From Sipunculus nudus (taxonomy: Eukaryota; Annelida; Sipuncula; Golfingiida; Sipunculidae), in contig CM049308.1 in assembly GCA_026874595.1 (NCBI GenBank), positions 50,268,124 through 50,332,123 on the forward strand: a stretch of 64,000 bases of DNA. The letters are read 5' to 3'. The notes beneath the pieces were generated by a model. That model was given only the letters and a program-made list of their open reading frames with translations. It did no database searches and was not told the DNA's origin. How positions within the stretch are numbered: position 1 is the stretch's first letter; every line of letters starts with the position of its first letter. A program made the translations under genes and the position numbers. Of the stretch, positions 514 through 64,000 are shown in pieces.

Positions 514-3500
514 GTATGTCATTCTGCTGTTATGCAGATAATTTAAAAGATATTGCTTAAAATTTCAGCATTAATTTACACCAGGATTAGCCAATAGAAT
601 AACTGTATGAATTGCAGAGATATTTATTATTCACTTATTATATGTATTATGATAAAAAAACTGGAGGGCACTTTAATGGTCATTACTGCTTGATACTTAT
701 CCTTTCTATCTATTTCTTAGTGAGGTAATTGTAAGATGGACCAGTGTTATAATTTCATCAGCTCAGTATTCCAGTGTGATGTGTTGCAAAATATTATGGT
801 TAGAGACATGCATTGCTTCACATAATATTATAAATGTATGGAATAAGAAAAGTTTGTCATGCTGTTTGACCATTGTCATATATCATGGTTAATCTGTTGA
901 TCTTTCAAATCCAGTGGAAGCACTTAAACCTAATCTTTGCTGTGGTGGAGATGTTCAAGTTGGGAGATGTTGGTGATAGGTTGTACAGTGTCTTGATATT
1001 AATTTTCCCACTTCAGATGGAGAACCAAGTAATAGTGTCAGATTATGCCCAGATGGACCGTGTACTGCGTGAGGAGAGACAGTATATCCTTAACATTGTT
1101 AAGCAAGTCAAGAAAGCAGGCTGCAACGTACTACTAATACAAAAATCTATTCTCAGGTAGGCATGTGTCACATCATCATTCCATATTAAAGAGTTGTAGT
1201 GGAATTTAGAGTATGAATCTTGTGTTGTATTCATAATAAAGACATAGTGTTATAGTCCAAACTACAGAAGTAATGTGTGATCATTTCATGGTGTAGTACA
1301 CCATGGCTGATAAGCCCTGTTTCATGGGACTTGGTTACCTTGTTGTTGTACAGCATGGCTGATAAGCCATGTTTCTTGGGACTAGGTTACCAGTTAGTAT
1401 CTTATGTATTGATAATCAGTGGCTCTTGGAACAAATGTTTCTAACTTTTTGATAATTATTGGGTCATATGACTCGGGGGGGGGGGGGGGGGGGGAGTACT
1501 TGTAAAACATTGTTTGAAGTCCCATTTTTAAACAACAGAGTCATTTCATGATTGAAAACCGACGGTCATGCTTGTTTTTCTGTTTGCTGGTAATTCTTTA
1601 TATTTTTATAATATACTTTTATATTTGTTACAGAGATGCTGTTAATGATCTTGCCCTTCACTTTCTGGATAAAATGAAAATCATGGCAGTTAAAGACATA
1701 GAAAGGGAAGACATAGAACATATTTGTAAGGTAATGATTTTGTCTGTGAATCGTTTCAGAATAAATACTCAGTTAAGTTTTATTTTTGCAAATATATAAA
1801 GGAAGTTTTCAGAAGAATCACATATCAAATAAGTATAGATATGCCTTCTGTAATTATATGTATTAACGCTTAACTGACCAAATGATGTTGTTAAGAAAAC
1901 AAAACTTTGTTTGCATTATCTGTATAACATCAAGAGAAGCATCACTGAAGAGCAGTCTCCTTATTGCATTAATTAATGCAAGTCCTTGATGATTACAGGC
2001 ATTAGGTTGTAAACCCATTGCAAGCCTGGATCATTTTACTCCTGAAATGTTGGGGACGGCTGACCTGGTGGAGGAGATCCAGACTGGGACCAGCAAGGTT
2101 ATCAAGGTGAGATCAGTCTGCTCCAGTGTATGTTTGGTTAAACAGGATCTTTGAAAGTGTTCATAGCATAGATGTTAGGGAAAAGAAAGATGTGCAGCAG
2201 GACAGGGTTGTTATCAAGGTAAGATCAGTCTGCTCCACTGTATGTTTGGTTAATCAGGATCTTTGAAAGTGTCCATAGCATGGATGTTAGGGAAAAGAAA
2301 GATGTGCGGCAGGACAGGGTTGTTATCAAGGTAAGATCAGTCTGCTCCACTGTATGTTTGGTTAATCAGGATCTTTGAAAGTGTCCATAGCATAGATGTT
2401 AGGGAAAAGAAAGATGTGCTGCAGGACAGGGTTGTTATCAAGGTAAGATCAGTCTGCTCCACTGTATGTTTGGTTAATCAGGATCTTTGAAAGTGTCCAT
2501 AGCATAGATGTTAGGGAAAAGAAAGATGTGCGGCAGGACAGGGTTGTTATCAAGGTAAGATCAGTGTGCTCCACTGTATGTTTAGTTAATCAGGATCTTT
2601 GAAAGTGTCCATAGCATAGATGTTTGGGAAAAGAAAGATGTGCGGCAGGACAGGGTTGTTATCAAGGTAAGATCAGTCTGCTCCACTGTATGTTTGGTTA
2701 ATCAGGATCTTTGAAAGTGTCCATAGCATAGATGTTAGGGAAAAGAAAGATGTGACGCAGGACAGGGTTGTTATCAAGGTAAGATCAGTCTGCTCCACTG
2801 TATGTTTGGTTACTCAGGATCTTTGAAAGTATCCATAGCATGGATGTTAGGGAAAAGAAAGATGAGCAGCAGGACAGGGTTGTTATCAAGGTAAGATCAG
2901 TCTGCTCCATTGTATGTTTGGTTAATCAGGATCTTTGAAAGTGTCCATAGCAAAGATGTTAGGGAAAAGAAAGATGTGCAGCAGGACAGGGTTGTTATCA
3001 AGGTAAGATCAGTCTGCTCCACTGTATGTTTGGTTAATCAGGATCTTTGAAAGTGTCCATAGCATAGATGTAAGGGAAAAGAAAGATGTGCGGCAGGACA
3101 GGGTTGTTATCAAGGTAAGATCAGTCTGTTCCACTGTATGTTTGGTTACTCAGGATCTTTGAAAGTGTTCAAAGCATAGATGTTAGGGAAAAGAAAGATG
3201 TGCGGCAGGACAGGGTTGTTATCAAGGTAAGATCAGTCTGCTCCACTGTATGTTTGGTTAATCAGGATCTTTGAAAGTATTCATAGCATGGATGTTAGGG
3301 AAAAGATGCGGCAGGACAGGGTTGTTATCAAGGTAAGATCAGTCTGCTCCACTGTATGTTTGGTTAATGAGGATCTTTGAAAGTGTCCATAGCATGGATG
3401 TTAGGGAAAAGAAAGATATGCAGCAGGACAGGGTTGTTATCAAGGTAAGATCAGTCTGCTCCACTGTATGTTTGGTTAATGAGGATCTTTGAAAGTGTCC

Positions 3501-6500
3501 ATAGCATGGATGTTAGGGAAAAGAAAGATGTGCAGCAGGACAGGGTTGTTATCAAGGTAAGATCAGTCTGCTCCACTGTATGTTTGGTTAATCAGGATCT
3601 TTGAAAGTGTTCATAGCATAGATGTTAGGGAAAAGAAAGATGTGCAGCAGGACAGGGTTGTTATCAAGGTAAGATCAGTCTGCTCCACTGCATGTTTGGT
3701 TAATCAGGATCTTTGAAAGTGTCCATAGCATGGATGTTTGGGAAAAGAAAGATGTGCGGCAGGACAGGGTTGTTATCAAGGTAAGATCAGTCTGCTCCAC
3801 TGCATGTTTGGTTAATCAGGATCTTTGAAAGTGTTCATAGCATGGATGTTAGGGAAAAGAAAGATGTGCGGCAGGACAGGGTTGTTGCCGAGTATTTAGA
3901 TTTCTAGGATTTAAGAATTTGTGAAAGAGATATTTGATATGTATTAGTGATGAGTTGATGATTAATTATAATAGAAAAACATTCTGATGATTAATCTTGT
4001 CTTAATCAGTTTAAGAATTTTGCATTTAATTAAGGCCTTGTGATTAGGAAATGTGTGCTTTCATATAATTCATTCCATCAAACTTAAAAAAATTCTGTGT
4101 TCACTGATAATCTCATACCTTAGTTCACTATATACACATGTAGACTATAGAAATATTATATATATCAGCCAACATCTCAGTTGAGATTATATACCAGATA
4201 TATATGGTCAGAATTTTCATTCTCCTAAACAACTGATTATTACCAACATTAGTATGTTTTATCAGTTGAAAAAAAAATTAAAACAAACAAAAATCCAATA
4301 ATTGGTATTTTGCACAGATCACCCTTACACACTTACAATTAACATAATTGGTATTTTGCACAGATCACCCTTACACACTGACAATTAAAATTTTAATTTT
4401 GTATCACCTTTTTTATTTACATAAGGTACAACATTTTACATGTAAGATTAATTTGATATGTTAGTTCCTGGTTAATTTGTGAACCTACCTGTGTGAATCT
4501 TTAAATATGTTATTGTTTGTAATATGAGAACCTGAACTATTTTGCTTTAAACTTGACAGGTGACTGGTATTGCCAATCAAGGTCGCACAGTGTCTGTGCT
4601 GGTGCGAGGTTCTAACAAGCTGGTTCTGGAGGAAGCTGACCGCTCTATACATGATGCCCTGTGTGTCATCAGGTGTCTGGTCAAGAAAAGGTAGGAGTCC
4701 AACACCAGTAGGACCATCAGTATATATAAACTACAACAGACCAGAAGTCAAAAGTAATAAAAAGAACTGCAGGTGCTGACACTGAAACTCATTTTCCAGA
4801 AACCAAGCAAGTTTTGGTAGTAGTGTTACAGATACTGTTTGGCATCTCTTAGTTATGACCATTACATTAGTAACAAATCTCATTTCCTCACTCAAACCAG
4901 ATGTGGGACTTGGGATCTGCTAAGTTAGTCTCCCTATATTGGCTTAACTTGAACATTGTACTGTTTGACCTTTCTTGTAAATTATTTATCCACCCAGTTA
5001 TACATGATGTTAGCTGTCCATGTGTGCTGTTACTGCTGATCCAGATGCATTCAAATAGTGATTTTTCAATGGAATGAAAAATTTTTTTTTTGCTTAGGAT
5101 AAAAATGATATTGTCATATTTTCCAAGAGATAATCCCACAAAGCATATAACATGTTTTCTACTGTCAGGGTGCTTGTCACTTGGGGATGGGATGATAAAG
5201 TTTCTGTGAATGAGAATGGGTTCCATGGTCCTACCATTAATGTGTACCCGACTGATTTACAGGGCTTTGATAGCAGGAGGTGGGGCTCCAGAGATCCAGC
5301 TCTCACTAGCACTAACTGAATATGCCAACACACTGACCGGTATGGAACAGTACTGCTTCCGTGCCTTTGCTGAAGCTATGGAGATCATCCCTTTCACGCT
5401 CGCTGAAAATGCTGGTCTGAACCCCATTGCCACGGTGACAGAGCTGAGGAACAGACACGCACAAGGAGAGACCACTGCTGGTATCAATGTCAGAAAGGTA
5501 AATGGCTTATACACTCAGGTCCAAAAACAGTCTTAACTGTAATGTAATTTGGATGCAAAATATTGAGTTGTGAGAGAATGTGTATCATTCAGGTTCAATT
5601 GTTTTGGCACATGTGTGGCCAGAGGATGATCTGGGCTTGCAAACTTAGTTTACACATTATCTGTCTGCTACTTGACCCATCTGTGGCTGTATATGTATGA
5701 TACTTACCTAGAAGGCCATTACCACCTCTGTGGTAAATGTTAGGTACATTCTTCTCAAGCTTACATAGTCAACTCCACCTCATAGTCTCTCCAACCCTCT
5801 GTCCGTAGATTTTAGTTCATGGTGCAGTAGGTTCAGAGTTCATTGAGAGGGATTGATTTGTTGGCTTATCTAAATCTCCTGGCTTCTTTTCAGTGTGCCA
5901 TCACAAACATCTTAGAAGAGAATGTGGTTCAACCTTTGTTGGTTTCCACTAGTGCTGTCCACCTGTCTGCTGAAACTGTCAGGAGTATACTGAAGATTGA
6001 TGACATTGTAAGTATACAAACAAAACTTACTGAAATCGTTCTGCATTATATATTCAGAATAAATGCACATAAATGACTGCTTAATAATATAAATAAAAAG
6101 TATATAAGTAAATAAAAAAGTATTGTTTACATAATCATTTCTCATTTGAGTTGCTATCTTTGTATTCATCATTTGTACTTTGCTATAATTCCTGGTAGGA
6201 TAAACATGTTTGCTATAATTCCTGGTAGGATAAACATGTTTGTTTGTTGTCATTTTTGAAGTGAAAAACTGCATTTTGTAGCACTTATTCCAGAGAAGAC
6301 CCATATCTTTAAGTAGTAATATATCTTTTTAGACCATTTTTTGATAATAGGACCATACCTTATTTTGAAACAATTTCTTTAGGAGGCCAGTAACTTTTCC
6401 AGCTATAGTTCTATCATCATACTAGGACAAGGCCTCCTTATGTCACTATTTTCATGTTAACATTATACGTTTAGAAAATAAAAGCAGCATTGGCTTAGAA

Positions 6501-21632: not shown

Positions 21633-22726
21633 AAACGTTAATGAGGTTAGGTGTAGCTACCGCTCAAGAAGTATTCCCCTGTGGAGAATCTTTATTAGTA
21701 AATGCCAAGATGTGTCCAATAGAAGTGGCACACCTGGTTTCCTTATGGACCGCTAGGTGGCAGCAGTAAGACGCCTAATCCTCAGCCTTCAGGTCAAGCA
21801 AACGTATTCCAACTCTCATAATCACTAATTCATTATAATTAAAAAATTAATATTAAGATTTTACATAACCTGAACCGAATGCCAGGTAGAAAAAAAACAT
21901 TTTTCCTATTTATTTTATCCACAAAAAAAAAAACACGAGGTTGTTGGATTTGTTAAAAAAAACTATTGGCAGTTTGGCACATCTATCAGCACTGTCGACT
22001 CAACAGTGACGTCACCCTCAGGGAAAACCACAGTGAATTAAAATTCTAGATATCATCAAAAGCTGAGTGTTTCTGACACTGTAAGTCCCATAATTTCAGG
22101 GAAGAATAAAAACATGTATTGCAAGATTTAAGTCATTTCTAAAGTTTGCCAGTGGCGTCATACTTTGTGCACAATGCTCCCTGCACATATGCACATATCA
22201 CCACCACGTGCTATTAAGGTTTACCAAACCTGTACTAAAAGGTGTCTGAGAAGTTTGACGTGATTTAAAAATTAAATATCTAATATCTTTAAAATTAATA
22301 TTTCACACATGCAACTGGTTGAGAGAGAGAGGTTTTTTTCCCATAATATTGTTTGATTCTTTTTTGGTAAAAATATAGTATTTTTGGCTTTCTCTAACAT
22401 TAAAGTGAGGGTGCATTTCTGCAGTTTTTGAAACCTCGACCACAGCCAGCTCTAGTGCTCGTTCACTGTTATTGTACACCTACCCATTAGTTATCAAAAT
22501 GAGTAATACTGTTTTCTTCTAATATCCGGTAAAAAATATTTTGATTCCTAAAAGCCCTCTGTAAATCTGGAAATTTGCCAGTGGGTAAATTCAGTGTAGC
22601 ATTTATGGCATTTTATAAAAGGTGTACGCGCGACGTTTTCCAGTATGGTGCAAACTATAGCCAATTTATTATTTGAACTGCCTTTCCCACTGAAATGGGT
22701 AAGGTTACCTAATATAGGCTATTAGA
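21633..22726. other. intergenic, little repeat seen
   Basis: No gene found. It contains a CTCF-like motif (21750-21765), a CRE palindrome TGACGTCA (22007-22014) and short A-runs. CpG dinucleotides are somewhat more frequent than in the repeats to the left. Confidence 0.5.
21750..21765 (+). promoter_or_regulatory. CTCF-like binding motif
   Basis: CCGCTAGGTGGCAGCA agrees at nearly all fixed positions with the known CTCF core CCGCNNGGNGGCAG. It is placed between CCT4 and MTA, directly outside the repeat block. Molluscs have CTCF; binding here is inference. Looser relatives are at 54189-54202 (TAGATGGCGCTGTC) and 55118-55131 (GCTCTAGGTGGCAG) in MTA introns. Confidence 0.5.
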
Positions 22727-28192: not shown

Positions 28193-28220
28193 ATGGCTGC
28201 TAATATGTATCGAGTCGGAG
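28193..28220 (+). CDS. MTA: MTA exon 1 (start codon)
   Basis: ATG at 28193 in the context GAAAATGGCT. It encodes MAANMYRVG plus the first base of the next codon; the donor is GGAG|GTATGT. The reading frame continues open past the donor only as intron. Confidence 0.93.
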
Positions 28221-52724: not shown

Positions 52725-55700
52725 CATATATAATCTCACTTGCAGTCTGTTGGTCAGGGCTTTTAAGTATCTGTATATGATACAGAATTAACTTGACCAT
52801 TGTTAGGTTAAGGAGCATTACCTAATCAGATGTTCTGATTGTAATTGTGTTAAACAGGGTTGTAAGATATGCTGTAGGTTAAGCATATGCCAGAACATAT
52901 AAACTGACAAACAATGGCTGTTGACAGTCCACTTTGTTGAAATATTTTTATTTTGTCATGATTCAGTGAGTTACTGAATTAATATTATCTTTTTTCCCCG
53001 CTTCTGAAGGAAGGGGAGACATTGATTTGGGTAGGTCTGTCTGTCTGTCTGTCACTTGTGCTTCTTTTTCCAAATATTCTCCCTAAATATTATCTGATAT
53101 CATTCGAATTTTATACCATGGTCCCTTTAGGAGTAACTTTTATTGAATCACTTATTTTCTGCCAGCTAAATGATCTTTAATACTTTTACCCAGAAAAGTA
53201 AGAAAATGTGTTTATATTTAGAATTTATTCAATGGCTAAGTATTTCTTCGAGCAAGTGAAATAAGATGGTATGAATTATTAAAAAATGATGTTTTCATCA
53301 CACTCTAAATTGATGGTGCAAAATAGGTTTTTGCATGTTAACTTTATAAGATAATATTGTTTACCTATTATCAAAGGAGCATCTGTAGCTGTCAACACCA
53401 ACCTTTACTGCCACACTATTCTTGTGTGTGATTTAAAGAGGCAGGTGGCACCACCTGTGTTGATATTTCTGTGAGCCAAAATAGGACTGCCACTGACAAA
53501 AACCAAGCAAAGTATGTAAATTCCATGAATTTGCTGTAAACCTTTTTATATAGATACATAACATGTACTAAAACATGGCAGTCTGGCCAGAAAATGTATT
53601 ATACATATTGCCTTTTGGTCAATAGTTCTTGTAAAATGTAATAATTTTATTACCCCATGGCAGTGAACATATGTCAGTCCACCAGATAAAATAATAACAC
53701 ATTATTAGTCCCCTGCCTCAGAAATAAGACTACTAAAATGGTTCATGTCTTTTAGTCCATCTGTCCATCCCAACACATTCTTTTACCAGATACCTCTAAA
53801 ACCTCTGCTGCTTTCTTCATCAAATTGTCCAGATATTCACCTCACTGGACTGACATATGATGATAAGGTGGCACCACCTCTGTTGAACCACTTTCTGAAA
53901 TCTAAAATGATCTTTTCCACTCTCCTACTGAAAAAGTCAGTTAAATAGGAGTACTTTTGCCCTCATACACAAGGATTCAAGGAGCTGGGGGAATTAAACA
54001 AATACAGTATTGAATGGAATTATTTTCTAAATGATTTTTCAACAGGACATTGAATTTAGCAGATCACAAAATTTTATAATTTCACATCTTTGCTTATATG
54101 GTGCAAAATCATTTACCTTTTATCTCAGGTACAATAGCACAAAATTTGACAGACATTGGTAATGTGATTGCTGCGTGATTTTTCCCTGTAGATGGCGCTG
54201 TCTGTATTGGCATACTATTGGGGGGGGGGGGGGGGGGGGGGGGTTTATTTCTGCTTATTCCTGAATTAGTCCAAAAAATAATTTAATTTTGCCTTTCCTG
54301 TTATGGTCAATTGTATCTTAGAACAAGGGCTTCAAAATTGCTTTTTCAAGTAAATGTTGCTAATCACAGCATTTTATGATTTCAGCTGTCTGCATACATT
54401 AAAGTTAAATCTAGTACGAAATATCCCAGCAACAGCAGGACAGAACCACCTATTTTTTATAATAGTTGAAATGGTATTTTCATTTTCACTGTTTGAAGTC
54501 AGGTTTTCCTTGTTTCCTTATGATCAGGACTTTTATTGCATGCACTAACCATGGATGGCTCGAGATAAATAACTGCCAACTAACTGCTAATGGTGTGTGC
54601 CCAGTCAGTCCATGTGGTACATGATTGTATCATTCTGTCCAGCGTGGATATAACCGCAGCAAGTGTCTGCAGGTAATTGATCTATATCTACTGTACTTCT
54701 TTGTTGTCAGGTGCCTTGGAAGAGGACCAAGAATTGGGCACCGATGAAGATCTAACAGAGAAACAGCGACACCAGCTAAAACACCGTGAACTCTTCCTCT
54801 CCCGCCAGGTGGAGACACTCCCTGCTACACACATACGCGGAAAGTGCTGCGTCACTCTGCTCAACGAAACCGAATCCTTCCTCTCGTATCTCAACAAAGA
54901 GGTCAGTTATCAGTATTAGAGTTAAAGAATATAAGTTTTGAAGGGGGCATTCTTTTTGGACTCAAAATTAAAGGGGGGAAAGAATATTACTTTTTCCTGA
55001 GAGACATTTTTGTGTTACTGTACATAATCATAACTCCCATTTTGTATGTTCTGTGCTGCCAGTGATATTGTCTGATTGCCTTTCAAAGAGTATTAGATCA
55101 ATTAGTGTCATGTTTGTGCTCTAGGTGGCAGGACTGACTATATTTCAGGTTAGTGTTCTTAGTATCAGGTAGGTGGCAGCACCTGCTTGACTACAGCTTT
55201 CTCTTCAGGAAAACCAGGTGCCATCTGTCAGTCAGTATTTTGAATTTTTGTTTTGTTTATGAACACATACAGTTAGAATATGTTACAGCTTCAACAGAAC
55301 TGACAACATAGTATCACTTGAGCATAACATACATGTACAAATACAAAGTGACTGCTTTGGAAAAAAAACATGGTTAATGTTGTGAGATAAGTTGGCCAAC
55401 AATTCATGTGATCACCTGAAAGATCCTGTCTGCATCAGAATATAATCATATTCAACCAGTTAATGGACATCTTTCCAGTCCCCAAGATCTAAAAATGATT
55501 CAGCATGACTTGCTGAGCTGTTAACAGTGAAAGGAAAATTTAAGAACGTGCTTGAATGATGATGATAGAACACAGACCTGTACTGAATCTTGTTGAAGAA
55601 ATGTTCTCTGACAAGCACTTCACTATCCAAATATGTAGCAGAGTATGTTAGAATGTTTATCAGTTACATTTGAGGATTCAGTAACCAGGGTCCTGGCCTG

Positions 55701-58700
55701 GATTTACAGCTCAGATGACTTTTGTCATCTGAGCTGTAGACATCACTCCTTGTCCGGCGTCCGTCTGTGTCTGTCCTTTAACCCTGCACAAATCATCACA
55801 ACTGGACCTGGAATCTTCTAACTTGACATCCAGAGAGGTCCATTAAAAATCTCCTGGACACCTCAAATTAGGTCTCTGTCGCCCATATCCCCCAAGCTAT
55901 AGGACTCAGAAGTAACCCCCCCCCCCCCCCCCAAAAAAAAAAAAAATTAAAAATTTGATACAAAAGCTTCAGAATTTAAACAACTATGCATCAACCACCA
56001 TGATTATTTGCATGCATTTTCATCACGGAATGTTCCATCAGTTCCTGCAGACTGGTGGTGCCACCTGGCTTTTCTAATTTTTACATATTTTTTCTCTATT
56101 TTTGAGACCTTTAAAGATGCGGTCATCTGTTAACAGGGCACAATTCATAACCATTGGACCTGGAATCTTCTAACTTGACATCTAGGGAAGTCCATGAAAA
56201 ATTTCCTTTGAAACCTGAAATTAGGTCTCTGTTACCCATATCCTCTGAGCTATGCTTCAGTTTAATTGGGATACCATTTACAAAATTTGGCATTCAGATG
56301 ATAAAATTCCTTTTGTGAAGGTCTTCCTACTGAGCTGGGCATCATGACCCCTGGGTCACTTGTTTCACAGTGTAACGACAGTTAAGAAAAGTATGTCCAG
56401 GGGAGGTCAGGGGGATGTAGCCCCCATGAAGCTTGAGCTCATTCAGCATGCCCAAATACAACAAAGTGCTATCTAAGACAATAGAATTTCGTAGTTAAAA
56501 CAGTACTTTGTATTTTAAATACTCTTGTAAGTGGTAAAATATTTTGATTTTTCTGGAATACTTCTTCCACAAAAATTTGATAATTTTGGCCTAATTCCCT
56601 CATCCTTCAGGGCCATTGTTCTCCTGCTAACTCAACAATGTTTATTTTAAAATTTTTACTTTCCCTTGTCTTTAATTTACTCAATTATCAGATGTCTTAC
56701 ATTGTCTGAAAGGATAAAATGAAAGGTGTCGAGCTCCCTTTATAATTTTGATCCGTAGATAAATAGTGGCAGGTGATTTTAATCATGGACGTTTCTGATA
56801 AAACTGTGACATTTTTGTGCATGCACATTTAATGGAATGCAAGTATTTTATATGTGCTTGAAACTTTCTATATTCATTTGCAAAAAGCTTTTGTAACATC
56901 AAGCAATATTACTTTGCAAGACGATATGAAATACATGTAAGTTTTATTATAAAGTCATTTCTGCAGTCTTGGACAATTTGGTAATGATACATGGGTGCCC
57001 ACTGCTGTTTATCGTTCTCATTTTGTGAGAAATTGATTGTATTAGCATAAAACTACATGTCACATGATTGGTGGAAAGACCCCCTTCCGAGAACCAATCA
57101 GTGACTCATTGTTTACTACATGCCTGTGGGTTGTTTCATTCATGGTATTTTTTGGCAGGAAATAGTCCGTGCACAATAGTTCTGAGCAGTGTCTACAAAT
57201 GTGATATCACAAGCAGACAATCGGCGATGATCTGTTGACTTTCGAGATGGCATGTTTTCAGGAGTCAAGGAACCTGAATCCTCATTAATGCAGGGGTAAC
57301 ATACAGAAGATTTTACCATCAACAAGCCTGTCAAAACAATCAAGAGCTCCTAGGATTTGTGCGGGATTCAAACTAAGACTGTTGACACTGTCTTCATCAG
57401 AAACATGGTCATAAATTTGCTGCTTATAAAAAATCAGCATAGTGGCCCTAATTACAGCGTAATTTGAAAACATACAAAGAAATTACCTGGTGAGGACCCT
57501 GAATAACTTGAGTTGGGGGGGTAGTGGGGTTGGTTGTATTAGTAATTGCAACAGTGCACTTGAGACCTGTAGACATTTGGACTGGCTTTTAAATCAGTCC
57601 AGTGAAACCTAAGTTTGACATCTGAAGTGTTTACACAATATCTGACTGATATATTTCCACTTTTGAAATTGCTTGCAAGCTTTAAGTATATGTTGTGAGG
57701 CTAATCCTTCCTTTGAATTTATGTCATGAACCTTGGCTTTTGTTTTTGTTGATTGTTCAACAGGGTCGGGACAAGTGAGATATTGCACCACTTGTGTATA
57801 AGTACTAGCTAGATACATGAATTCAAGTACATGGGTATGAGTATAAATACGTATGGGTGGTACTCAGAACAAGTACAGAGTTGTTTATTTCAAGAAAAGT
57901 ACATAACATATACATATATTCTTTCCAGTTCCTTTCTTTATTCATGTTTTGTACATTTATACCACATTACACACTATATTTAATATTTATTTATTACAGT
58001 GAAACCCCTCTATAGTGAACGGTCATGGGACTGATTGTTTTGTCCATTATAGCAGGGTGTCTGCCCAAGAGAGATCAGGCCAGGTGGTCTTGTTGGGGCA
58101 AGATGTAGGCAAGGGACTTTGATTTGGGTTTTGTGTCCCATTGGAAATTTGTTGATTGATTTGGGACTTTTGTCCCATGGGTAACTTGATTGATTTGGGT
58201 CTTGTGTTCCATGGGTAACCTGTTGATTGATTTGGGTCTTGTGTTCCATGGGTAACCTGTTGATTGATTTGGGTCTTGTGTTCCATGGGTAACCTGTTGA
58301 TTGATTTGGGTCTTGTGTTCCATGGGTAACCTGTTGATTGATTTGGGTCTTGTGTTCCATGGGTAACCTGTTGATTGATTTGGGTCTTGTGTTCCATGGG
58401 TAACCTGTTGGTTGATTTGGGTCTTATGTTCCATGGCTAACTTGTTGATTGATTTTGGTCTTGTGTTCCATGGGTAACCTGTTGATTGATTTGGGTCTTG
58501 TGTTCCATGGGTAACCTGTTGATTGATTTGGGTCTTGTGTTGTTGACTACAGGATGCCTTCTTCTACTCGCTGGTGTATGACCCTTCACAGAAGACACTG
58601 CTGGCAGACAAGGGAGAAATCAGAGTGGGCAGTCGTTACCAGGCTGAAATACAGCCACTTCTCAAAGAAGGTAAGTCGTTACTGGGGTGAAATGCAGCCA

Positions 58701-61700
58701 CTTCTCAAAGAATGCCACTTGCAAAGTATGTCAACTGTATCTTACTCCAGAGCACAAAGAAGCAAAATAAATTTGAAAAGGAAGTTTTATGGTTATGTAT
58801 AGCATTATCTCAAACAAAGATGTTTATGAATCCTGCCTGACATACCTTTAAAGCAAGTAATGAAGAAAATAAGAACAACGTGGACGCTTACAAATGTAAT
58901 CAAACATGTCTGTAGAAACTAACATCAAAAGAAACATGAGAAACCCAGTGCTTGTGTGATGAAAATACACAGACCTGTACTGAACAACAGGAAAGAAAAA
59001 CCATGTCTGACAAGCACCTAATTTTCCTGCGGATCACTCTTGTAAAAGAGGAACCTCCTGGTATATAATGTTGCATAGATTTGGTAAATTATAGTGTACA
59101 TTCTAGTGTTTATTTCACAGTGTTCATTTCAAAGTTGACCAGTGATGTTATTTTTATTTTGCAGGAGAGACAGATGGCAGAAAAATTGAAGAACTGGAAG
59201 AACTTATATGGGATCCGGTTAATAACCTAAATGACCGACAGATTGACCAGTTTATGGTGGTAGCAAGGTAAGTCTTCTGGTGCTACTAGTGGCAGAACGT
59301 AAGAAACAAAAGGGAAACATGTTTTTTACAGCTGGTGCAAGCTACAATAGGAGTTTGCTGCCCCCTACCCCCTCCCTTTAAAACTTAATTGGCATCATCA
59401 TTTATTTCAGATAAACTCAGTGGCTCACAGCTAAGGGAATGCTGAAGGCAAAATGCAGTGTTAGAAAGCTTCCATGAAAAAGGATGACTTCTGCATTAAT
59501 CTGAAAGTTTGACACTGACACTGACAGATATGTAGTAGTTCTGTTGTTGCTAGCATGTAACTCTCCTCTAAAAGTTGGGTAAACCTTAAACAAAGCAAAG
59601 GGTTGCTCTATATTGCATAAAAAGGATTAACAGGGATCAGATTTCTTGTAATTAGTTCATAGGTGAAAGAAAACACCATATTCTTATGACTTTTGTAATA
59701 TTCCAATACTCCATGCCTGTGGCAACATGGTCCCCTTCATAAACTTTGTATGACCTTTCAAATATATTCAGATCATGAGTGACATTTTACAAGGTAACTA
59801 TAGCATGTTATAAATAGATGGATCCTTTAACTCATTTTAAATGCCACTAGATGTCTTATAGAATTGCATCCATAAATTTATCCTGTGTAAATAAATCCCA
59901 TAGGGTCACATTTAATACAGGTATTACACCTTTATTGTTATGTACATACATCTTTTCATTGGCTAAAAGTTGTTGAGCAGCCATTGAGTTTCTTTTGCCA
60001 AGCAGCATAAAAAAATGCCAGTCACTTCTGGTCAGTCCTGCTTGGTGTGAGCATTCTCTGGCATGACCAGTAAATTAATTTTTCCCTATTTGAAATGGAC
60101 AGGGCTCATGAAAGAATTATATTAATTATAAAAGTGCAGCTTTGTTATTGATAAATGATAAGCAAAATACCAAAACTTTCATGTGTGCATGAATGATGAT
60201 AAAACACAGACCTGTACTGATAAAACAAGAGGAAAAAACATTATCTGATTTGCACACATAAGTACATTATTTTTAAATCCCTGAATGGGACTTATTCATT
60301 CAAAACATACTTTCTGTATGATACAAGTCCTAATTTTTTCTTGAATTATATATATATATATATATATTTATATATTTATAATATATAATTTGATCATCTG
60401 TTTAATCATGATTTTATAAATAATGAGTCCTGTTATCTCGTGGACATTTCCCCTTCACGGTGGCCATCTTGTGGTTTGTGTGTTTTAGGTCTGTTGGGAC
60501 ATTTGCCCGTGCATTAGACTGCACTAGCACAGTTAGACAGCCCAGTCTACATATGAGTGCTGCAGCAGCATCAAGAGATGTTACACTGGTAAGTACAGCT
60601 TTGTCAGCTGCAGTTATCCCTGGCATCTCTATAACTGTGAGATACAGAGGACATATAAGTGATATGCCGGGCAATATATACCATGGTATAACACTGGACT
60701 GAGATGACATTCAGTATATTTCAGTAAAAGTTAATATATGATCCGTGTATGCTGGTATAGTATAAATCAAGTATTTATTTTTTGCATATTTAAATCTGAG
60801 TAATAATATGAATAACCTTGTGCATGGTATGTTTCAAAACACTCCATACCATGTTCACCACTCTGAACTTGTTAATGTTGTCACTTTTGACGAATGAATC
60901 TAAGGGTAGCCTGCTTCACTTAAGCAGGAGTTTAAGCACATTTATTATATCCCCAGACAAAGTCGGGATACTATGGTTTCACGACATTCCCGCCGCCGCC
61001 GCAGAAAAACCTTGTGAGCGGGATAACTAAAAAAATACTTCACTGATCTTTTTCAAACTTTACATTTGTATAGATATAGGTAAAGGGACGTAGCCTATTT
61101 AAAATGGGGTCATGACCTATGCTAGGAGAGTGACCTTGACCTCGAATAGGTCCATTTTTGCTGAAAATAACACAAATTCTTAAATATCTCAAGTAAGCTT
61201 GCATGGACTGGTCCAAAAATCAAGGTGACCAAAGATCTTGGATAGCCTTGTGGTATACCGGAAACTGGTGGCGCCACCTATTATCCTTTCCTTGCTTTTA
61301 ATACCCCCATAATTGCCACTTGACAGTACTGTAAGCATTATAAGTCAAAAACTAACGGACAGATTTCTTTCATATTATGCACATGTAGTGAGATGGGTTA
61401 TGGGATGAGGTCTATTTACATTTGGGTCATGACCTTTACCATGAGAGTGGCCTTGACCTTTAATGTGTCTAAAGTTGGTGAAAATCATGCACCTCTTATG
61501 ATATCTCCAGTGTTGATAGCCATATGGATTTCAAACGTGACTTATGTATGGCTAACCACTAAAGTAAGAACCCTATAGGTTCTAGGGTCATGAGGTCAAA
61601 GGTCAAGGTCACTGGACTAGCATCTTAAAAGATACTGTGGATGCATTTCAAGCCAAACTTTCATCCCAGATCTTTCATCTTGAATATATAGCTCTCTTGC

Positions 61701-64000
61701 CAATAGTGGATGATCCATATCAATTTTGGGGTCACAAGGTCAAAGGTCAAGGCCACAGGAGCTATCTGTCAAAAAATTAGTTTCTGGATGATAATTCCTG
61801 CTTTTATTGATGTATTGATTTCAAACTTGACTTATATATGTCCCATTGGAAAAGCAAGACCCAAATTGATTTTGGGGTCATGAGGTCCAAGGTCAAGGTC
61901 ACAGGTCACATCTTTAAACAGGTGTGGATGCATTTTCAGCCAAACATTTCATCTCATATCTTTCATCTTGCACATCACCTGCCAAGAGTGGAAGACCCCT
62001 ATCAATTTTGAGGTCACAAGGTCAAAGGTGAAGGTCACAGGAGCCATCTGTCCAAAAATTAGTTCCAGAGATGATAATTCAAGCTTGGATTAATATATCA
62101 ATTTCAAACCTGACTTATATATGGCCCATCAATAAATCTATTGATTTATATATAAAAGTGGATGATCAATATCAATTTTGGGGTCACAAGGTCAAAGGTC
62201 AAGGCCACAGGAGCCATCTGTCAAAAAATTAGTTTCTGGATATTAATTCCTGCTTTTATTGATGTACCAAGTGTCAGTATAGGCTGCTAAAAATGGGGGC
62301 CTATTCTTAAAGGGGGGGCCGTACTATGTCTGGGGATACTCTGGCACCGCAGTTTAACATGCAATCAGCATAGATTACAGAAAAAAATACAACGACAGAC
62401 CTGAGATTTTACAGTGAAATTCATATAACTGGTATGATGAGATTTACTGGTAAACCTGTAAAAAAAACCAGTGAAACTGGTATTTTGATATCCCAGACAA
62501 TAAAAACCCATGAAATATGAAATCCTAGCATTCCATATAATAATGGTATATGACCACACTCTAGATACAATCTACATATTTCTTATAAGCAAAAGTTGAT
62601 GTAGGCCTAGTGTGACCTTTATTTATGGAATGGATTAAAAGTAGCTTCTTCTCGTATTTGAGCAGTGACTGGGAACACGTGTCACAGTTTGTAGAAAGTC
62701 TATGTTTGTATGATGAAATTACACAGACCTGTACTGATCCACAGGGAGGAAACCCTATATATCTGATGAGCATAGACACCAGCATAGCATCAACTGTGAC
62801 ACATGCCAGTCATTTAATGAATTTATGTACCAGCAAAAGTACAAATTAAACCAAAATTTGATAATTAAACTAAAACATTTTATAATTGAAGTATGTTTTG
62901 TTTTTATTAGCTCTTACATAGAGACAGTGTTATATGTAAGCCACAGGGTGAACATAACACAAGTGCAACTAAAGTGGAATCTGGTCCTTTGCATTGATTT
63001 TGTAAGGTTATATCAAATGTTTTCTTTATTTCTTTTTAGTTCCATGCAATGGACACCCTCCACAATCACAAATACAATTCGTCCAAAGCCATTTCCAGTC
63101 TAGTGCCTCCCGGTGGCCCAGTGTTATGTCGAGACGAAATGGAGGAATGGTCAGCATCTGAAGCCAACTTGTTTGAGGAAGCTCTTGACAAATATGGCAA
63201 AGACTTCAATGACATCAGACAGGACTTTGTGAGTAGTGAAAAATTGTGTATTTTTTGTACTTAGTGGTAACTTTAAGAAGAACATGAAAGAATTTAATTC
63301 AGAGGTTGATTCATGTGAATTTTTTCCCCGGTTGATTCTTTCTTTTTAGTGTGAGGGAGGGATAAATAACTAATCAACTCCAGGTTAAAGGGTGATCTTC
63401 ATATATATGCCATTTGTTTGGATTCTGTGGGTATTTTACAGGTAAAGCAGGATCAGTAGTAGTAGTCCTAACATCATTATGATGGTAAACTGATTTTAAA
63501 ATAAGATGATGTATGAAAATATCAGTGCAGAAAGAATACCTGCTTGCATGATGACATCACACAGACCTGTACTGAATATGTAGGAGGAAACTTTTTGTCT
63601 GACAAGCAGTTAGAGACCTGTGTCACCAGACACAGGCAGTCTTAACATATTTTATGTAGACATAGGGACAGATGTTATGAGATTGTTATAGATCTTTAGG
63701 TTATATTTCCAAATTTGTGAAAGGTCGACCTGTTCTAGAGACAAAATTTGGTATGATAACTCTCTGCTGAGGGTTTTACCTTTAAAGTTCTTGATCTGAG
63801 GAAGTCTGTTCTGCCTGATACACTGATCACATCTAATGGACAAATCATTCACATGTGTATTCAAGTCAAGCTGGAATATCTGTATACCTGTAGTCCTGTA
63901 AATTTTCTTTAAGATACTCTCTGTCTGTTTCAGTTACCATGGAAGTCGTTAAAAAGTGTGGTAGAGTATTATTACATGTGGAAGACCACAGACAGATACG
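28193..64000 (+). CDS. MTA: MTA-family protein, NuRD subunit (first ten coding exons)
   Basis: MTA proteins scaffold the NuRD chromatin-remodelling and deacetylase complex: BAH binds nucleosomes and ELM2-SANT wraps and activates HDAC1/2 in the nucleus. Exons are 28193-28220, 28687-28754, 28923-29016, 29661-29687 (microexon, probable), 54711-54901, 58553-58670, 59165-59267, 60489-60588, 63040-63228 and 63934-64000 (cut by the window end). Phases are consistent throughout; 985 coding bases give ~328 residues. BAH is about residues 1-148 ([85 protein letters not shown]). ELM2 is about 160-265 ([52 protein letters not shown]). SANT begins at ~275 ([37 protein letters not shown]). The start codon is chosen because MAANMYRVG is the conserved MTA N-terminus. 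The GATA-type zinc finger and the C-terminal RBBP4-binding motifs lie beyond the window. Vertebrates have MTA1-3; which one this matches best cannot be decided here. Confidence 0.96.
28687..28754 (+). CDS. MTA: MTA exon 2
   Basis: The acceptor is TTTCTTGCAG. The exon completes Asp and encodes [20 protein letters not shown] then NK, the first BAH strands. The donor is AAG|GTATTG in phase 0. Confidence 0.95.
28923..29016 (+). CDS. MTA: MTA exon 3
   Basis: Encodes [20 protein letters not shown] then [11 protein letters not shown] (BAH). The donor is CAAA|GTGAGT in phase 1. The preceding intron is only 168 bp. Confidence 0.95.
29017..29660 (+). other. MTA: MTA intron 3
   Basis: A 644-bp intron ending in a strong polypyrimidine tract TTTCCTTTTTCAG, which argues that the microexon is real. 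No snoRNA or repeat was recognised in it. Confidence 0.6.
29661..29687 (+). CDS. MTA: MTA 27-nt microexon (candidate)
   Basis: The acceptor TTTCCTTTTTCAG|AT and donor GATG|GTATGT frame exactly 27 nt, with entry and exit both in phase 1, so the frame holds with or without it. Included, the protein reads [20 protein letters not shown]; skipped, it reads ADKHQSALEED. In vertebrate MTA proteins this same place, inside BAH between the ADKH and KHQLRHREL blocks, holds a longer variable linker, so extra residues are expected here. RNA evidence is not available to me. Confidence 0.75.
29688..32900 (+). other. MTA: MTA giant intron, first part
   Basis: First 3.2 kb of a ~25 kb intron (29688-54710). 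It is AT-rich and looks mostly single-copy within the window. No coding exon, RNA gene or repeat family was recognised. Confidence 0.5.
32901..34954 (-). mobile_element. decayed hAT-like DNA transposon (~2.05 kb)
   Basis: The ends form a terminal inverted repeat CAGGGTTGG (32902) / CCAACCCTG (34946-34954), typical of hAT elements. The flanks AGTTACAT and ACTTACAC match at 6 of 8 positions, compatible with a decayed 8-bp target duplication. Sub-terminal regions are rich in GGCTAA / TTAGCC and AAACC / GGTTT repeats. Inside, the minus strand encodes a remnant of a transposase C-terminus (34273-34458). No long ORF survives, so it is dead. Confidence 0.75.
34273..34458 (-). pseudogene. hAT transposase C-terminal remnant
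   Basis: The 61-codon minus-strand ORF contains [17 protein letters not shown] then LVLTKLHNR, the pattern of the hAT dimerisation region (a small-residue run, then ER-F-S and a -K-RNR stretch). Only this end is readable; the rest is lost or frameshifted. It lies inside the TIR-bounded element 32901-34954, which supports the call. Confidence 0.7.
34955..36161 (+). other. MTA: MTA giant intron, unique-looking segment
   Basis: No gene, repeat family or RNA recognised in this 1.2-kb stretch. Confidence 0.45.
36162..36747. mobile_element. TIR element family D (586 bp)
   Basis: Perfect 14-bp terminal inverted repeats GTATCCCCAGACAA (36162-36175) and TTGTCTGGGGATAC (36734-36747). A longer relative is at 60948-62338 with the same ends and the same right sub-terminal block (GGGGGCCTATTCTTAAAGGG). 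There is no coding capacity, so this is a MITE-like non-autonomous DNA element. A G-run lies at about 36716-36729. Confidence 0.8.
36748..36906 (+). other. MTA: MTA giant intron fragment with palindrome
   Basis: Repeat-like text CTCCAGTATCTGTATAACTA... with GGTGGCGCCACC at 36875-36886; related in style to families D and E but not assignable. Confidence 0.4.
36907..37031 (+). repeat. family C, 5' fragment
   Basis: AGACGCCCGTCTTAAGACAA ... GATGGATTTTCACATAACTC matches the start of the family C copy at 22727. It is cut off and joined to family A sequence. Confidence 0.6.
37032..37983 (+). repeat. family A, 3' portion
   Basis: Starts in family A internal text (AAGGATTTTATCTGTTAAAA) and ends CAGCTGAGCGATGTGACCCA...CCCTTGTTT. 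It shares a long stretch with 20895-21632. Confidence 0.6.
37984..39167 (+). repeat. family A 3' end and older A-like remnants
   Basis: 38157-38407 matches the right end of the copy at 9243-9487 (ATATGGCCAAGTCAAAACCT ... GGGTCCTTTGTTT). 38420-38900 carries older text of the same style (GGGCACAAATAGTAACTGTT, GGTCTTGGTGACCTATA) also seen at 55790-56250. Confidence 0.5.
39168..39397 (+). repeat. family C, 3' fragment
   Basis: Two GAGGTCAGAGGTCACCAGAC-type blocks and an end GGGTGTATTATGCACCTATT, like the right half of the 22727-23270 copy. Confidence 0.6.
39408..40390 (+). repeat. repeat family E with ~275-bp internal tandem
   Basis: Opens GCCAAAACAGAGTTTTGCGG with a GCCGCCGCCGCCCGCG stretch. 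A ~275-bp unit is repeated about 2.3 times (from ~39596, ~39866 and ~40155): GGATAAAATC...CTCATATCTCAGCAGTGG, TGGCGCCACCTACATTCAC, CATCCAAGCTCATATCTC, TGGCGCCACCTGC. Three exact GGTGGCGCCACC palindromes are at 39814, 39963 and 40092. Coding potential was not seen. Confidence 0.65.
40488..41100 (+). repeat. two diverged family A starts
   Basis: AGTTCAGCCATAAAGTATGT...CACCTGAGCTATAG at 40490 and AAGTTCAGCCAAGGAGTTTA...CACCTGAGGTATATAG at 40880 are degraded forms of the family A hairpin start. Each is followed by ~200-350 bp of related text. Confidence 0.5.
41101..43854 (+). other. MTA: MTA giant intron, mostly unrecognised
   Basis: 41101-41700 has family D-like phrases (AATACCCC plus a C-run, GGTCATGACCTT-like text, GGTCAAGGTCAAAGGTC). 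The remainder has no recognised repeat or gene. C-run at about 41146-41160. Confidence 0.4.
43855..46668 (+). repeat. family A copy, long form
   Basis: Well preserved hairpin start AGCTCAGCTGACTATAAGTC at 43855, then the same sequence order as 7315-9487, a second internal block from ~44640, C28 at 45688-45715, C-rich runs at ~46227-46258, and an end TCAGCTGAGCACAGTGACCC near 46648. Confidence 0.65.
45688..45715. repeat. poly(C)28 tract
   Basis: 28 consecutive C inside a family A copy. Similar C or G runs occur at 1475-1494, 14711-14725, 15232-15248, 25635-25649, 46227-46257, 54220-54243 and 55917-55932. Confidence 0.95.
46669..48393 (+). repeat. family A, second internal unit and 3' end
   Basis: Family A text continues (CTCCCACCATCCCCTTCCCC at 47248, TTAACCTTCCAGG at ~47690) to a well preserved right end CAGCTGAGCGCCGTGACCCA at ~48359-48393. 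A CT-rich low-complexity tract is at 46817-46881. Confidence 0.55.
48394..52660 (+). other. MTA: MTA giant intron, mostly unrecognised
   Basis: A degraded family A start is visible at about 49053-49180 (AGCACGGCTGACTTAGTCTT ... GCTATGTGATGGTGCTTTGT). Otherwise no gene, RNA or repeat family was recognised over about 4 kb. Confidence 0.4.
52661..52722. repeat. (GT)n then (AT)n microsatellite
   Basis: GT alternation at 52661-52672 followed by TATG and then an AT run to 52722 with one interruption. Confidence 0.95.
52723..54710 (+). other. MTA: MTA giant intron, last part, with a G24 tract
   Basis: A repeat-like segment begins near 52998 (CCCCGCTTCTGAAGGAAGGG, then CTGTCTGTCTGTCTGTC) and includes near-palindromes GGTGGCACCACC at 53444-53455 and 53867-53878. 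G24 is at 54220-54243. The intron ends TTCTTTGTTGTCAG. Confidence 0.5.
54711..54901 (+). CDS. MTA: MTA exon 5
   Basis: Encodes [20 protein letters not shown] then [40 protein letters not shown] and NKE (63 codons after a split one). This is the second half of BAH and matches vertebrate MTA closely from QLKHREL on. The donor is GAG|GTCAGT in phase 0. Confidence 0.97.
55548..55618 (+). ncRNA. SNORD25: box C/D snoRNA, SNORD25 (U25) family, copy 1
   Basis: A 7-bp terminal stem GTGCTTG (55548-55554) / CAAGCAC (55612-55618) encloses a C box ATGATGA (55556-55562), guide ACACAGACCTGTA (55570-55582), D' box CTGA (55583-55586) and D box CTGA (55608-55611). The guide is complementary to the conserved 18S rRNA segment ACAGGTCTGTG. 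By the D+5 rule the methylated base is the first G of its GG, the site known for vertebrate U25 (Gm1490 in human numbering) and yeast snR56. It is intronic and on the sense strand of MTA, so it is expected to be released from the spliced intron. Confidence 0.88.
55705..56364 (+). repeat. family A variant opening with a perfect 15-bp hairpin
   Basis: TACAGCTCAGATGAC (55705-55719), loop TTTT, GTCATCTGAGCTGTA (55724-55738). It ends GAGCTGGGCATCATGACCCC...GTCACTTGTTT near 56364, the equivalent of the family A right end. Internal text GGCACAATTCATAACCATTG occurs twice (~55775 and ~56136). Confidence 0.65.
56365..58117 (+). other. MTA: MTA intron 5, unrecognised middle part
   Basis: No repeat family, RNA or exon could be supported here. 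A minus-strand ORF at 57285-57473 was considered and rejected. Confidence 0.4.
58118..58545 (+). repeat. 37-bp minisatellite next to a 3' splice site (about 11-12 units)
   Basis: Unit TTGATTGATTTGGGTCTTGT plus GTTCCATGGGTAACCTG, nearly identical in the central copies and diverged at the left edge. The last unit breaks off inside GTCTTGTGTT, 7-8 bp before the acceptor GACTACAG|GATGCC of MTA exon 6, so repeat sequence supplies the branch/polypyrimidine region of that splice site. Long minus-strand ORFs here are products of the repeat and not genes. Confidence 0.95.
58553..58670 (+). CDS. MTA: MTA exon 6
   Basis: Encodes [20 protein letters not shown] then [19 protein letters not shown], spanning the end of BAH and the start of ELM2. 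The donor is GAAG|GTAAGT in phase 1. Its last ~40 bp are duplicated in the next intron. Confidence 0.97.
58631..58716 (+). repeat. 43-bp tandem duplication across the exon 6 donor
   Basis: Unit 1 (58631-58673) is AGTCGTTACC...CTCAAAGAAGGTA, ending in the working donor; unit 2 (58674-58716) is AGTCGTTACTGGGGTGAAAT...CTCAAAGAATGCC. Unit 2 keeps the exon-like text but has no GT at the donor position. Confidence 0.9.
58948..59017 (+). ncRNA. SNORD25: box C/D snoRNA, SNORD25 (U25) family, copy 2
   Basis: Stem GTGCTTG (58948-58954) / CAAGCAC (59011-59017); C box GTGATGA (58956-58962); guide ACACAGACCTGTA (58967-58979); D' box CTGA (58980-58983); D box CTGA (59007-59010). It sits in MTA intron 6 (494 bp), about 150 nt before the 3' splice site. 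The stem is the same as in copy 1, while the region between D' and D is quite different. Confidence 0.88.
59165..59267 (+). CDS. MTA: MTA exon 7
   Basis: Completes Gly and encodes [20 protein letters not shown] then [13 protein letters not shown] plus a split Arg codon; ELM2 N-terminal half. The acceptor is TATTTTGCAG and the donor CAAG|GTAAGT. Confidence 0.96.
59268..60488 (+). other. MTA: MTA intron 7
   Basis: A 1.2-kb intron; apart from SNORD25 copy 3 and a short AT microsatellite (about 60347-60366) nothing was recognised. Confidence 0.6.
60181..60259 (+). ncRNA. SNORD25: box C/D snoRNA, SNORD25 (U25) family, copy 3
   Basis: C box ATGATGA (60193-60199), guide ACACAGACCTGTA ending just before D' box CTGA (60217-60220), D box CTGA (60245-60248). 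The terminal stem is different from copies 1 and 2, but a 9-bp one is available: ATGTGTGCA (60181-60189) / TGCACACAT (60251-60259), separated from the boxes by 2-3 nt. MTA intron 7, about 230 nt before the 3' splice site. Confidence 0.85.
60489..60588 (+). CDS. MTA: MTA exon 8
   Basis: Encodes [20 protein letters not shown] then [13 protein letters not shown] after a split Arg codon; ELM2 C-terminal half, the surface that wraps HDAC1/2. The acceptor is GTGTGTTTTAG and the donor CTG|GTAAGT in phase 0. Confidence 0.97.
60948..62338. mobile_element. TIR element family D, long copy (~1.39 kb)
   Basis: Ends TATCCCCAGACAAAGTCGGG and ATGTCTGGGGATA are inverted repeats shared with 36162-36747. Internally a ~280-bp unit recurs 2-3 times (ATCAATTTTGGGGTCACAAG, GGTCAAAGGTCAAGG, AAAAATTAGTT, TTTCAAACTTGACTTATAT). 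A GGTGGCGCCACC palindrome lies at 61267-61278 and a CCGCCGCCGCCGCAG stretch near the left end. No transposase ORF is visible. Confidence 0.75.
62698..62777 (+). ncRNA. SNORD25: box C/D snoRNA, SNORD25 (U25) family, copy 4
   Basis: Stem GTCTATG (62698-62704) / CATAGAC (62771-62777), unrelated in sequence to the other copies but fully paired. C box ATGATGA (62710-62716), guide ACACAGACCTGTA, D' box CTGA (62734-62737), D box CTGA (62763-62766). MTA intron 8, about 260 nt before the 3' splice site. Confidence 0.86.
63040..63228 (+). CDS. MTA: MTA exon 9
   Basis: Encodes [20 protein letters not shown] then [20 protein letters not shown] and [20 protein letters not shown]. It joins ELM2 to the SANT domain, which starts at about DEMEEW. 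Exactly 63 codons, phase 0 at both ends. Confidence 0.97.
63229..63933 (+). other. MTA: MTA intron 9
   Basis: A 705-bp intron carrying SNORD25 copy 5; the rest shows nothing recognisable. It ends CTGTCTGTTTCAG. Confidence 0.65.
63540..63609 (+). ncRNA. SNORD25: box C/D snoRNA, SNORD25 (U25) family, copy 5
   Basis: Stem CTGCTTG (63540-63546) / CAAGCAG (63603-63609): compared with copies 1 and 2 the outer G-C pair has become C-G, a compensatory change. C box ATGATGA (63548-63554), guide CACACAGACCTGTA, D' box CTGA (63572-63575), D box CTGA (63599-63602). MTA intron 9, about 320 nt before the 3' splice site. Confidence 0.88.
63934..64000 (+). CDS. MTA: MTA exon 10, cut by the window end
   Basis: Encodes [20 protein letters not shown] then RY plus one base; second and third helices of the SANT domain. 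The rest of the gene (GATA finger, C-terminal region) lies to the right. Confidence 0.95.

What the first reader, a model, noticed from the sequence alone, without database searches (positions are those of the whole stretch)
55548..63609. MTA gene is a multi-copy host for SNORD25 (U25): one snoRNA in each of five consecutive introns
Five sense-strand copies (55548-55618, 58948-59017, 60181-60259, 62698-62777, 63540-63609) share C box, the guide ACACAGACCTGTA, D' and D boxes, and each has a paired terminal stem. One copy per intron is the classic arrangement of snoRNA host genes (known: human U25 sits in the SNHG1 host gene, one snoRNA per intron). Having the same guide five times in a protein-coding chromatin gene is an arrangement I do not know from any described genome.
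Basis: partly seen in the sequence, partly recalled or inferred. Interest (0 to 1): 0.93.

Follow-up and report, generated by a model that had tools for sequence, protein, structure and literature searches.

The report
Six U25 snoRNAs inside MTA gene
An animal chromatin gene (MTA) carries five intact-looking copies and one worn copy of the same small guide RNA, U25, in its introns: a familiar kind of arrangement in an unfamiliar host gene.

Summary
Five sense-strand C/D-box RNA genes with the U25 guide sit one per intron in five consecutive introns of an MTA gene. The C box, the 17-nt guide+D' block and the D box are identical in all five. The D'-D interval is only 55% alike, and the closing stem shows compensatory changes. 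A sixth, diverged copy lies about 28 kb right of the window in another MTA intron. In the 1.43-Gb genome the full box-and-guide pattern matches only these five loci. Of 71 guide+D' sites, none of the 65 outside MTA has a convincing C/D layout. MTA is thus the only U25 source found. These are very probably SNORD25/snR56-type guides for 18S Gm1490, released from spliced MTA introns. This genome also has two SNORD24 copies 2.5 kb apart. New to me: the MTA host, the copy number for U25, and exclusivity. No Rfam model reaches its cut-off. Expression, rRNA methylation and conservation in relatives could not be tested.

The parts
55548..55618 (+). U25-type C/D snoRNA copy 1 (intron 54902-58552; 2934 nt from the 3' splice site)
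   Evidence: boxes, guide, 7-bp stem; 77.3 bits with model R1, which was built from these five
58948..59017 (+). U25-type copy 2 (intron 58671-59164; 147 nt from the 3' splice site)
   Evidence: 87.9 bits
60181..60259 (+). U25-type copy 3 (intron 59268-60488; 229 nt from the 3' splice site), 11-position stem with one non-standard pair
   Evidence: 83.1 bits (60185-60255)
62698..62777 (+). U25-type copy 4 (intron 60589-63039; 262 nt from the 3' splice site), 11-bp stem
   Evidence: 80.2 bits (62702-62773)
63540..63609 (+). U25-type copy 5 (intron 63229-63933; 324 nt from the 3' splice site)
   Evidence: 88.0 bits
28193..64000 (+). MTA gene, the part in the window; exon pieces at 28193 (weak), 28680, 28920, 54711-54901, 58553-58670, 59165-59267, 60489-60588, 63040-63228, 63934-; goes on to about 93357 in window coordinates, outside the window
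   Evidence: tblastn with a recalled human MTA1; Pfam BAH, ELM2, Myb/SANT and MTA_R1 above cut-off, GATA below its cut-off, on a joined peptide that includes pieces right of the window

Best explanation
The five elements are functional C/D-box snoRNA genes of the U25/snR56 type. They arose by duplication within one host gene and are carried one per intron by MTA. When MTA pre-mRNA is spliced, the C/D core proteins assemble on each element, exonucleases trim the intron to the stem, and the RNA pairs through CACAGACCUGU with 18S rRNA ACAGGUCUGUG. The 5th nucleotide above D' (a C) faces the G that is Gm1490 in human numbering, so that G is 2'-O-methylated. The five copies act redundantly and raise the dose. 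A sixth copy in a downstream MTA intron looks as if it is decaying (C box TGATTA, one change in the guide). Shown: anatomy, positions, conservation pattern, stem covariation, absence of other matches to the patterns searched. Inferred: expression, processing, methylation, redundancy.
For: C box, guide+D' and D box are 100% identical in the five copies, while the C-to-guide spacer is 38% and the D'-D interval 55% alike (shuffled interval 45%, maximum 50% of 200 shuffles). The closing stem is paired in 42 of 43 cells with 4 pairs changed on both sides (two of these four rest on two sequences only). 0 of 500 shuffles reach the paired percentage or the covariation score, 7 of 500 the count of pairs changed on both sides, 5 of 500 the count of pair types; slid versions pair in 16-52% of cells (five sequences). 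All five are sense-strand, one per intron. The full pattern has no match elsewhere in the genome. Of 71 guide+D' places, those with C and D boxes in snoRNA spacing and a closing stem are the six MTA copies. The guide gives an 11-bp Watson-Crick duplex with a recalled 18S segment, and the 5th nucleotide above D' is the C that pairs with the target G. U25, snR56 and AtsnoR19 are listed as equivalents at Gm1490 (PMC3511168, PMC8817022, table passages).
Against: No RNA data exist here. No Rfam family passes its gathering score; the nearest U25-clan model falls about 18 bits short, although Rfam's SNORD24 model does pass in this same genome. None of the five lies about 70 nt from the 3' splice site, the distance reported as optimal (147, 229, 262, 324, 2934 nt; PMC1821038, passage). 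The genome's own intact 18S was not found: only a broken rDNA fragment turned up. The human MTA1 and 18S letters used as queries were recalled. The C' box is degenerate. Stem covariation rests on five sequences.
Confidence: 0.87

Rival explanations
1. Only some copies are live. One or two supply U25 and the rest are duplicates or pseudogenes that still look intact.
For: A diverged sixth copy exists in the same gene, so copies seem to die. Copy 1 lies 2934 nt from its 3' splice site.
Against: The unconstrained parts are strongly diverged while boxes and guide are identical in all five, and the stems changed on both sides. Recent dead copies would be alike throughout; old dead copies would have lost boxes.
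Confidence: 0.15
2. A retroposed or otherwise mobile snoRNA family, not duplication by recombination within the gene: the MTA copies are insertions that landed in introns.
For: Flanks of the six copies (8-300 nt out) share nothing beyond matches of 11-19 nt with E 0.12-0.41, so whole introns were not recently copied.
Against: No copy with boxes found elsewhere in 1.43 Gb; all six in one gene and one orientation, which random insertion would not give. Old duplications also lose flank similarity.
Confidence: 0.06
3. The elements act mainly in cis, on MTA splicing or on the level of its transcripts, rather than on rRNA.
For: Intronic snoRNAs with roles within their host locus are reviewed in print (PMC11028025, start of abstract in a listing only).
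Against: The most conserved part is the 18S guide with its boxes; the rest between the boxes is little alike.
Confidence: 0.04
4. Chance or low-complexity resemblance.
For: The guide 13-mer alone occurs 190 times in the genome (86 for the reversed word), and similar words sit in minisatellites on C8 and C1.
Against: Box architecture, stem and one-per-intron layout were found only in MTA; reversed control 0, antisense control 0.
Confidence: 0.01

Closest known systems
SNORD25/U25 (human, in SNHG1), snR56 (yeast), AtsnoR19 (plant), CD1 (Dictyostelium), Nc CD19 and CD41 (Neurospora): guides for 18S Gm1490 and equivalents
   Same: Same target site and D'-guide type; the snR56 and Dictyostelium DdR1 Rfam consensus share the guide letters (PMC6466398, PMC3511168, PMC8817022, PMC2780460, table passages)
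   Different: Human U25 lies in SNHG1, a host of eight snoRNAs (PMC6466398, passage); here five copies plus one worn copy lie in a protein-coding chromatin gene
Three U14 (SNORD14) copies in introns of hsc70 (human, mouse, rat)
   Same: Same C/D snoRNA repeated in introns of one protein-coding host (PMC7277114, passage)
   Different: Other guide, other host, three copies rather than five or six
DmSnR60 a-d in Drosophila minifly/Nop60B
   Same: Four isoforms of one C/D snoRNA within introns of one protein-coding gene (PMC1821038, abstract and passages)
   Different: Host is a ribosome-biogenesis gene, position near 70 nt from the 3' splice site, two predicted guides; here one guide is conserved and the distances are longer
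SNORD24 pair in the same genome (C4:42540919-42540995 and 42543463-42543538)
   Same: Two copies above Rfam's gathering score on one strand, 2.5 kb apart
   Different: Two copies; host gene not identified

Membership tests
Box C/D snoRNA | C box RUGAUGA near the 5' end and D box CUGA near the 3' end | tested here: met
   TGATGA and CTGA in five of five copies; the sixth has TGATTA and CTGA
Box C/D snoRNA | closing terminal stem next to C and D boxes | tested here: met
   7-11 positions, 42 of 43 cells paired, with changes on both sides
Box C/D snoRNA | internal D' (and C') boxes with a guide directly 5' of D' | tested here: met
   guide+D' identical in five; C' only as a degenerate GA.GAAA motif
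Box C/D snoRNA | stable RNA bound by fibrillarin, NOP56, NOP58 and SNU13 | not testable with these tools
   no RNA data
U25/snR56 guides (18S Gm1490) | guide complementary to 18S ACAGGUCUGUG with the target G facing the 5th nucleotide above D' | tested here: met
   11-bp duplex and a C at that place, with a recalled 18S segment, not the genome's own; 10 bp for the sixth copy
U25/snR56 guides (18S Gm1490) | match to an Rfam model of the clan at its gathering score | tested here: not met
   best is snR56 RF01188, 31.5-36.3 bits against 54. SNORD25 RF00054 belongs to the same clan (PMC3511168 table passage), and only the best clan member is printed, so its own score is unknown
U25/snR56 guides (18S Gm1490) | the rRNA G is methylated in this organism | not testable with these tools
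   needs RiboMeth-seq
Intragenic C/D snoRNA duplicates in one host | several paralogues in different introns of one gene, same orientation | tested here: met
   five consecutive introns plus one distant intron

The most novel reading that the evidence does not exclude
In this lineage MTA, a chromatin (NuRD-type) subunit gene, has become the sole and long-standing multi-copy source of the universal 18S Gm1490 guide. The methylation of one ribosomal position would then be dosed by transcription and splicing of a chromatin regulator, with five redundant copies kept by selection over a time long enough to nearly randomise the sequence between the boxes.
Probability: 0.35. Interest if true: 0.45.

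Novelty: new member of a known kind. Interest (0 to 1): 0.3.

Why it matters
It is a clean case of a universal rRNA-methylation guide whose every copy found in a 1.4-Gb genome sits in one protein-coding host, in five neighbouring introns, with a sixth copy apparently dying in the same gene. It gives a natural series for asking how many copies selection keeps, how intron position affects output, and whether guide dosage follows the host. It fits the 'constrained drift' view, in which guides move between hosts while expression is kept (PMC3511168, abstract and passages). It does not reveal a new kind of system.

Tried and rejected
Second multi-copy U25 locus: five CAGACCTGTACTGA on C8 within 28 kb looked like another host. 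They are units of a minisatellite without C/D boxes. Rejected.

Other U25 genes: all 71 genome-wide CAGACCTGTNCTGA places lie in loci that were fetched and checked for boxes (67 distinct contexts, as four pairs of places are identical over 54 nt). Seven passed a loose filter: the six MTA copies and L085, whose C-like and D-like words are not joined by a stem by eye; the only model hit in that locus, 13 bits, lies beside the site. The best covariance-model scores outside MTA were 21.8 (L087, no C box upstream) and 19.8 bits (L041), against 46.5 for the sixth copy (the five MTA loci L031-L035 were left out). The pattern C box + guide without D' gave 76 places (6 for the reversed pattern): 30 in a C1 minisatellite, 6 rows for the five MTA copies, 40 others. 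Four of those 40 were read and have no D' after the guide; 36 were not read beyond the listed letters, but one search shows that none of them runs on into D' and D as in MTA. A U25 gene with changed boxes and changed guide would have been missed.

Other C/D snoRNAs in MTA introns: none in the box-and-stem scan or by Rfam at gathering score (for the window, for L015-L018).

The genome's own 18S: exact 25-mer absent; one near-match beside a partial rDNA match; a viral-contig scan for 18S found 0. Dropped; recalled 18S letters were used.

Literature: answered searches were. Only asked for MTA1 together with SNORD25 or snoRNA host gene (20 papers, 10 listed); the one paper holding all three terms, PMC8005115, has them in unrelated places (passages). 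Searches (8 papers, 8 listed; 407, 15 listed; 67, 12 listed) asked for molluscs, bivalves or lophotrochozoans, and I saw no study of snoRNA host genes there in the listings. So 'not in print' is not established. Only listings, abstracts and passages were read, no whole paper.

Full report
The five elements are real and at the stated places. Each is a sense-strand C/D-box RNA gene by anatomy: TGATGA, a four- to seven-base spacer, ACACAGACCTGTACTGA (guide and D'), a degenerate C' motif, CTGA and a closing stem. The exact 15-mer core is found only at these five places in the window. No Rfam family reaches its curated score in the window. Below that score, at E up to 10 over 55000-64000, the highest-scoring matches at the five places are yeast snR56 and Dictyostelium DdR1, whose consensus letters share the guide. 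Vertebrate SNORD25 is in the same clan as snR56 (PMC3511168, table passage), and only the best clan member is printed, so its own score is unknown. Against my reading, the SNORD24 model does pass its cut-off in this genome while the U25-clan model falls about 18 bits short.

The host is MTA. Exon pieces from 28193 to about 93357 in window coordinates match a recalled human MTA1 in order (the pieces at 28193, 71073 and 88960 are weak on their own, E 4.7 to 18, and those at 67344 and 93250 modest, E 0.012). The joined peptide hits Pfam BAH, ELM2, Myb/SANT and MTA_R1 above their cut-offs and GATA below its cut-off. Splice sites place one copy in each of five consecutive introns, 147 to 2934 nt from the 3' splice sites. 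Seventeen exon pieces were seen, giving 16 intervals taken as introns; further exons may have been missed. Five carry an intact copy and one, between the pieces at 90326 and 93250, carries a diverged sixth copy (window coordinate 92373-92443, 46.5 bits). The other ten gave nothing above 14 bits in the model searches; a 15.9-bit match at 21844 lies left of the gene.

Evidence that the elements are kept as RNAs: boxes and guide are identical in five of five copies. The C-to-guide spacer is 38% and the D'-D interval 55% alike, against 45% for shuffled intervals. The terminal stem pairs in 42 of 43 cells, with changes on both sides at four pairs; 7 of 500 shuffles reach that count and 0 of 500 the covariation score. 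Only five sequences stand behind this, and two of the four pairs have letters in two sequences only. Flanks share nothing beyond matches of 11-19 nt. The duplications are therefore old relative to unconstrained sequence, which is an inference.

Evidence on exclusivity: the full pattern TGATGA-guide-D'-CTGA matches five loci in 1,426,538,692 bases, all here, reversed control 0. The looser guide+D' pattern has 71 places (16 for the reversed pattern): six are the MTA copies and 65 lie elsewhere, none with a convincing C/D layout. Degenerate U25 genes with a changed guide and changed boxes would be missed, as the genome could not be searched with the covariance model.

Mechanism. Established for intronic C/D snoRNAs in general: release from introns, protein assembly, exonuclease trimming (PMC7277114, passages). 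Applied here: the guide gives an 11-bp duplex with 18S ACAGGUCUGUG and aims at the G known as Gm1490 in human (target from PMC6466398 and PMC8817022 table passages; the 18S letters and the fifth-nucleotide rule are recalled). The sequence 5' of the D box differs between copies, so only the D' guide is likely to be used. The distances to the 3' splice site are all longer than the roughly 70 nt reported as optimal (PMC1821038, passage); this counts mildly against efficient release.

Comparison with what is known. [quoted passage not shown] all seen as abstracts or passages. CHD8 carries SNORD8 and SNORD9, both aimed at U6-A53, and CHD4 carries scaRNA11 (PMC6466398, table passages), so chromatin-gene hosts are known as well. 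In this genome SNORD24 too has two copies 2.5 kb apart on one strand. What is new to me is the host, the copy number for U25, and that no other U25 locus was found.

Verdict: real, probably functional, and of a known kind. The surprise is modest.

Noticed in passing
window coordinate 92373-92443 (L018:373-443, G000:C3:50360496-50360566), outside the window: Sixth, diverged U25-like copy in a downstream MTA intron: C box TGATTA, guide ACGCAGACCTGT, D' CTGA, stem pairing kept in part by G-U pairs.
   Followed up: yes
L094:920-996 and 3464-3539 (G000:C4): Two SNORD24 copies above Rfam's gathering score, same strand, 2.5 kb apart; host gene not identified.
   Followed up: partly
window 58112-58541: Tandem array of a 37-bp unit, about 430 bp long, inside the MTA intron that holds copy 1, ending 11 nt before the end of the intron.
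   Followed up: no
G000:C8:69271984-69299502: Minisatellite whose unit contains CAGACCTGTACTGA without snoRNA boxes; it mimics the U25 guide and D'.
   Followed up: yes
G000:C1:3404724-3407741: Minisatellite with TGATGAGAGGACAGACCTGT units, 23 bp apart where dense, another chance mimic of C box plus guide.
   Followed up: no
L057 (G000:C17:49116123): An 18S-like 26-mer with one change inside the U25 target, beside a partial SSU rRNA match; no intact copy of the 25-base 18S stretch was found in the assembly.
   Followed up: partly
window 5210-5533 (+): Open frame that looks like a TCP-1/CCT chaperonin delta subunit exon (recalled resemblance, not tested).
   Followed up: no
window 61498-62266: Imperfect direct repeats of 42-132 nt in the MTA intron that holds copy 4.
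   Followed up: no
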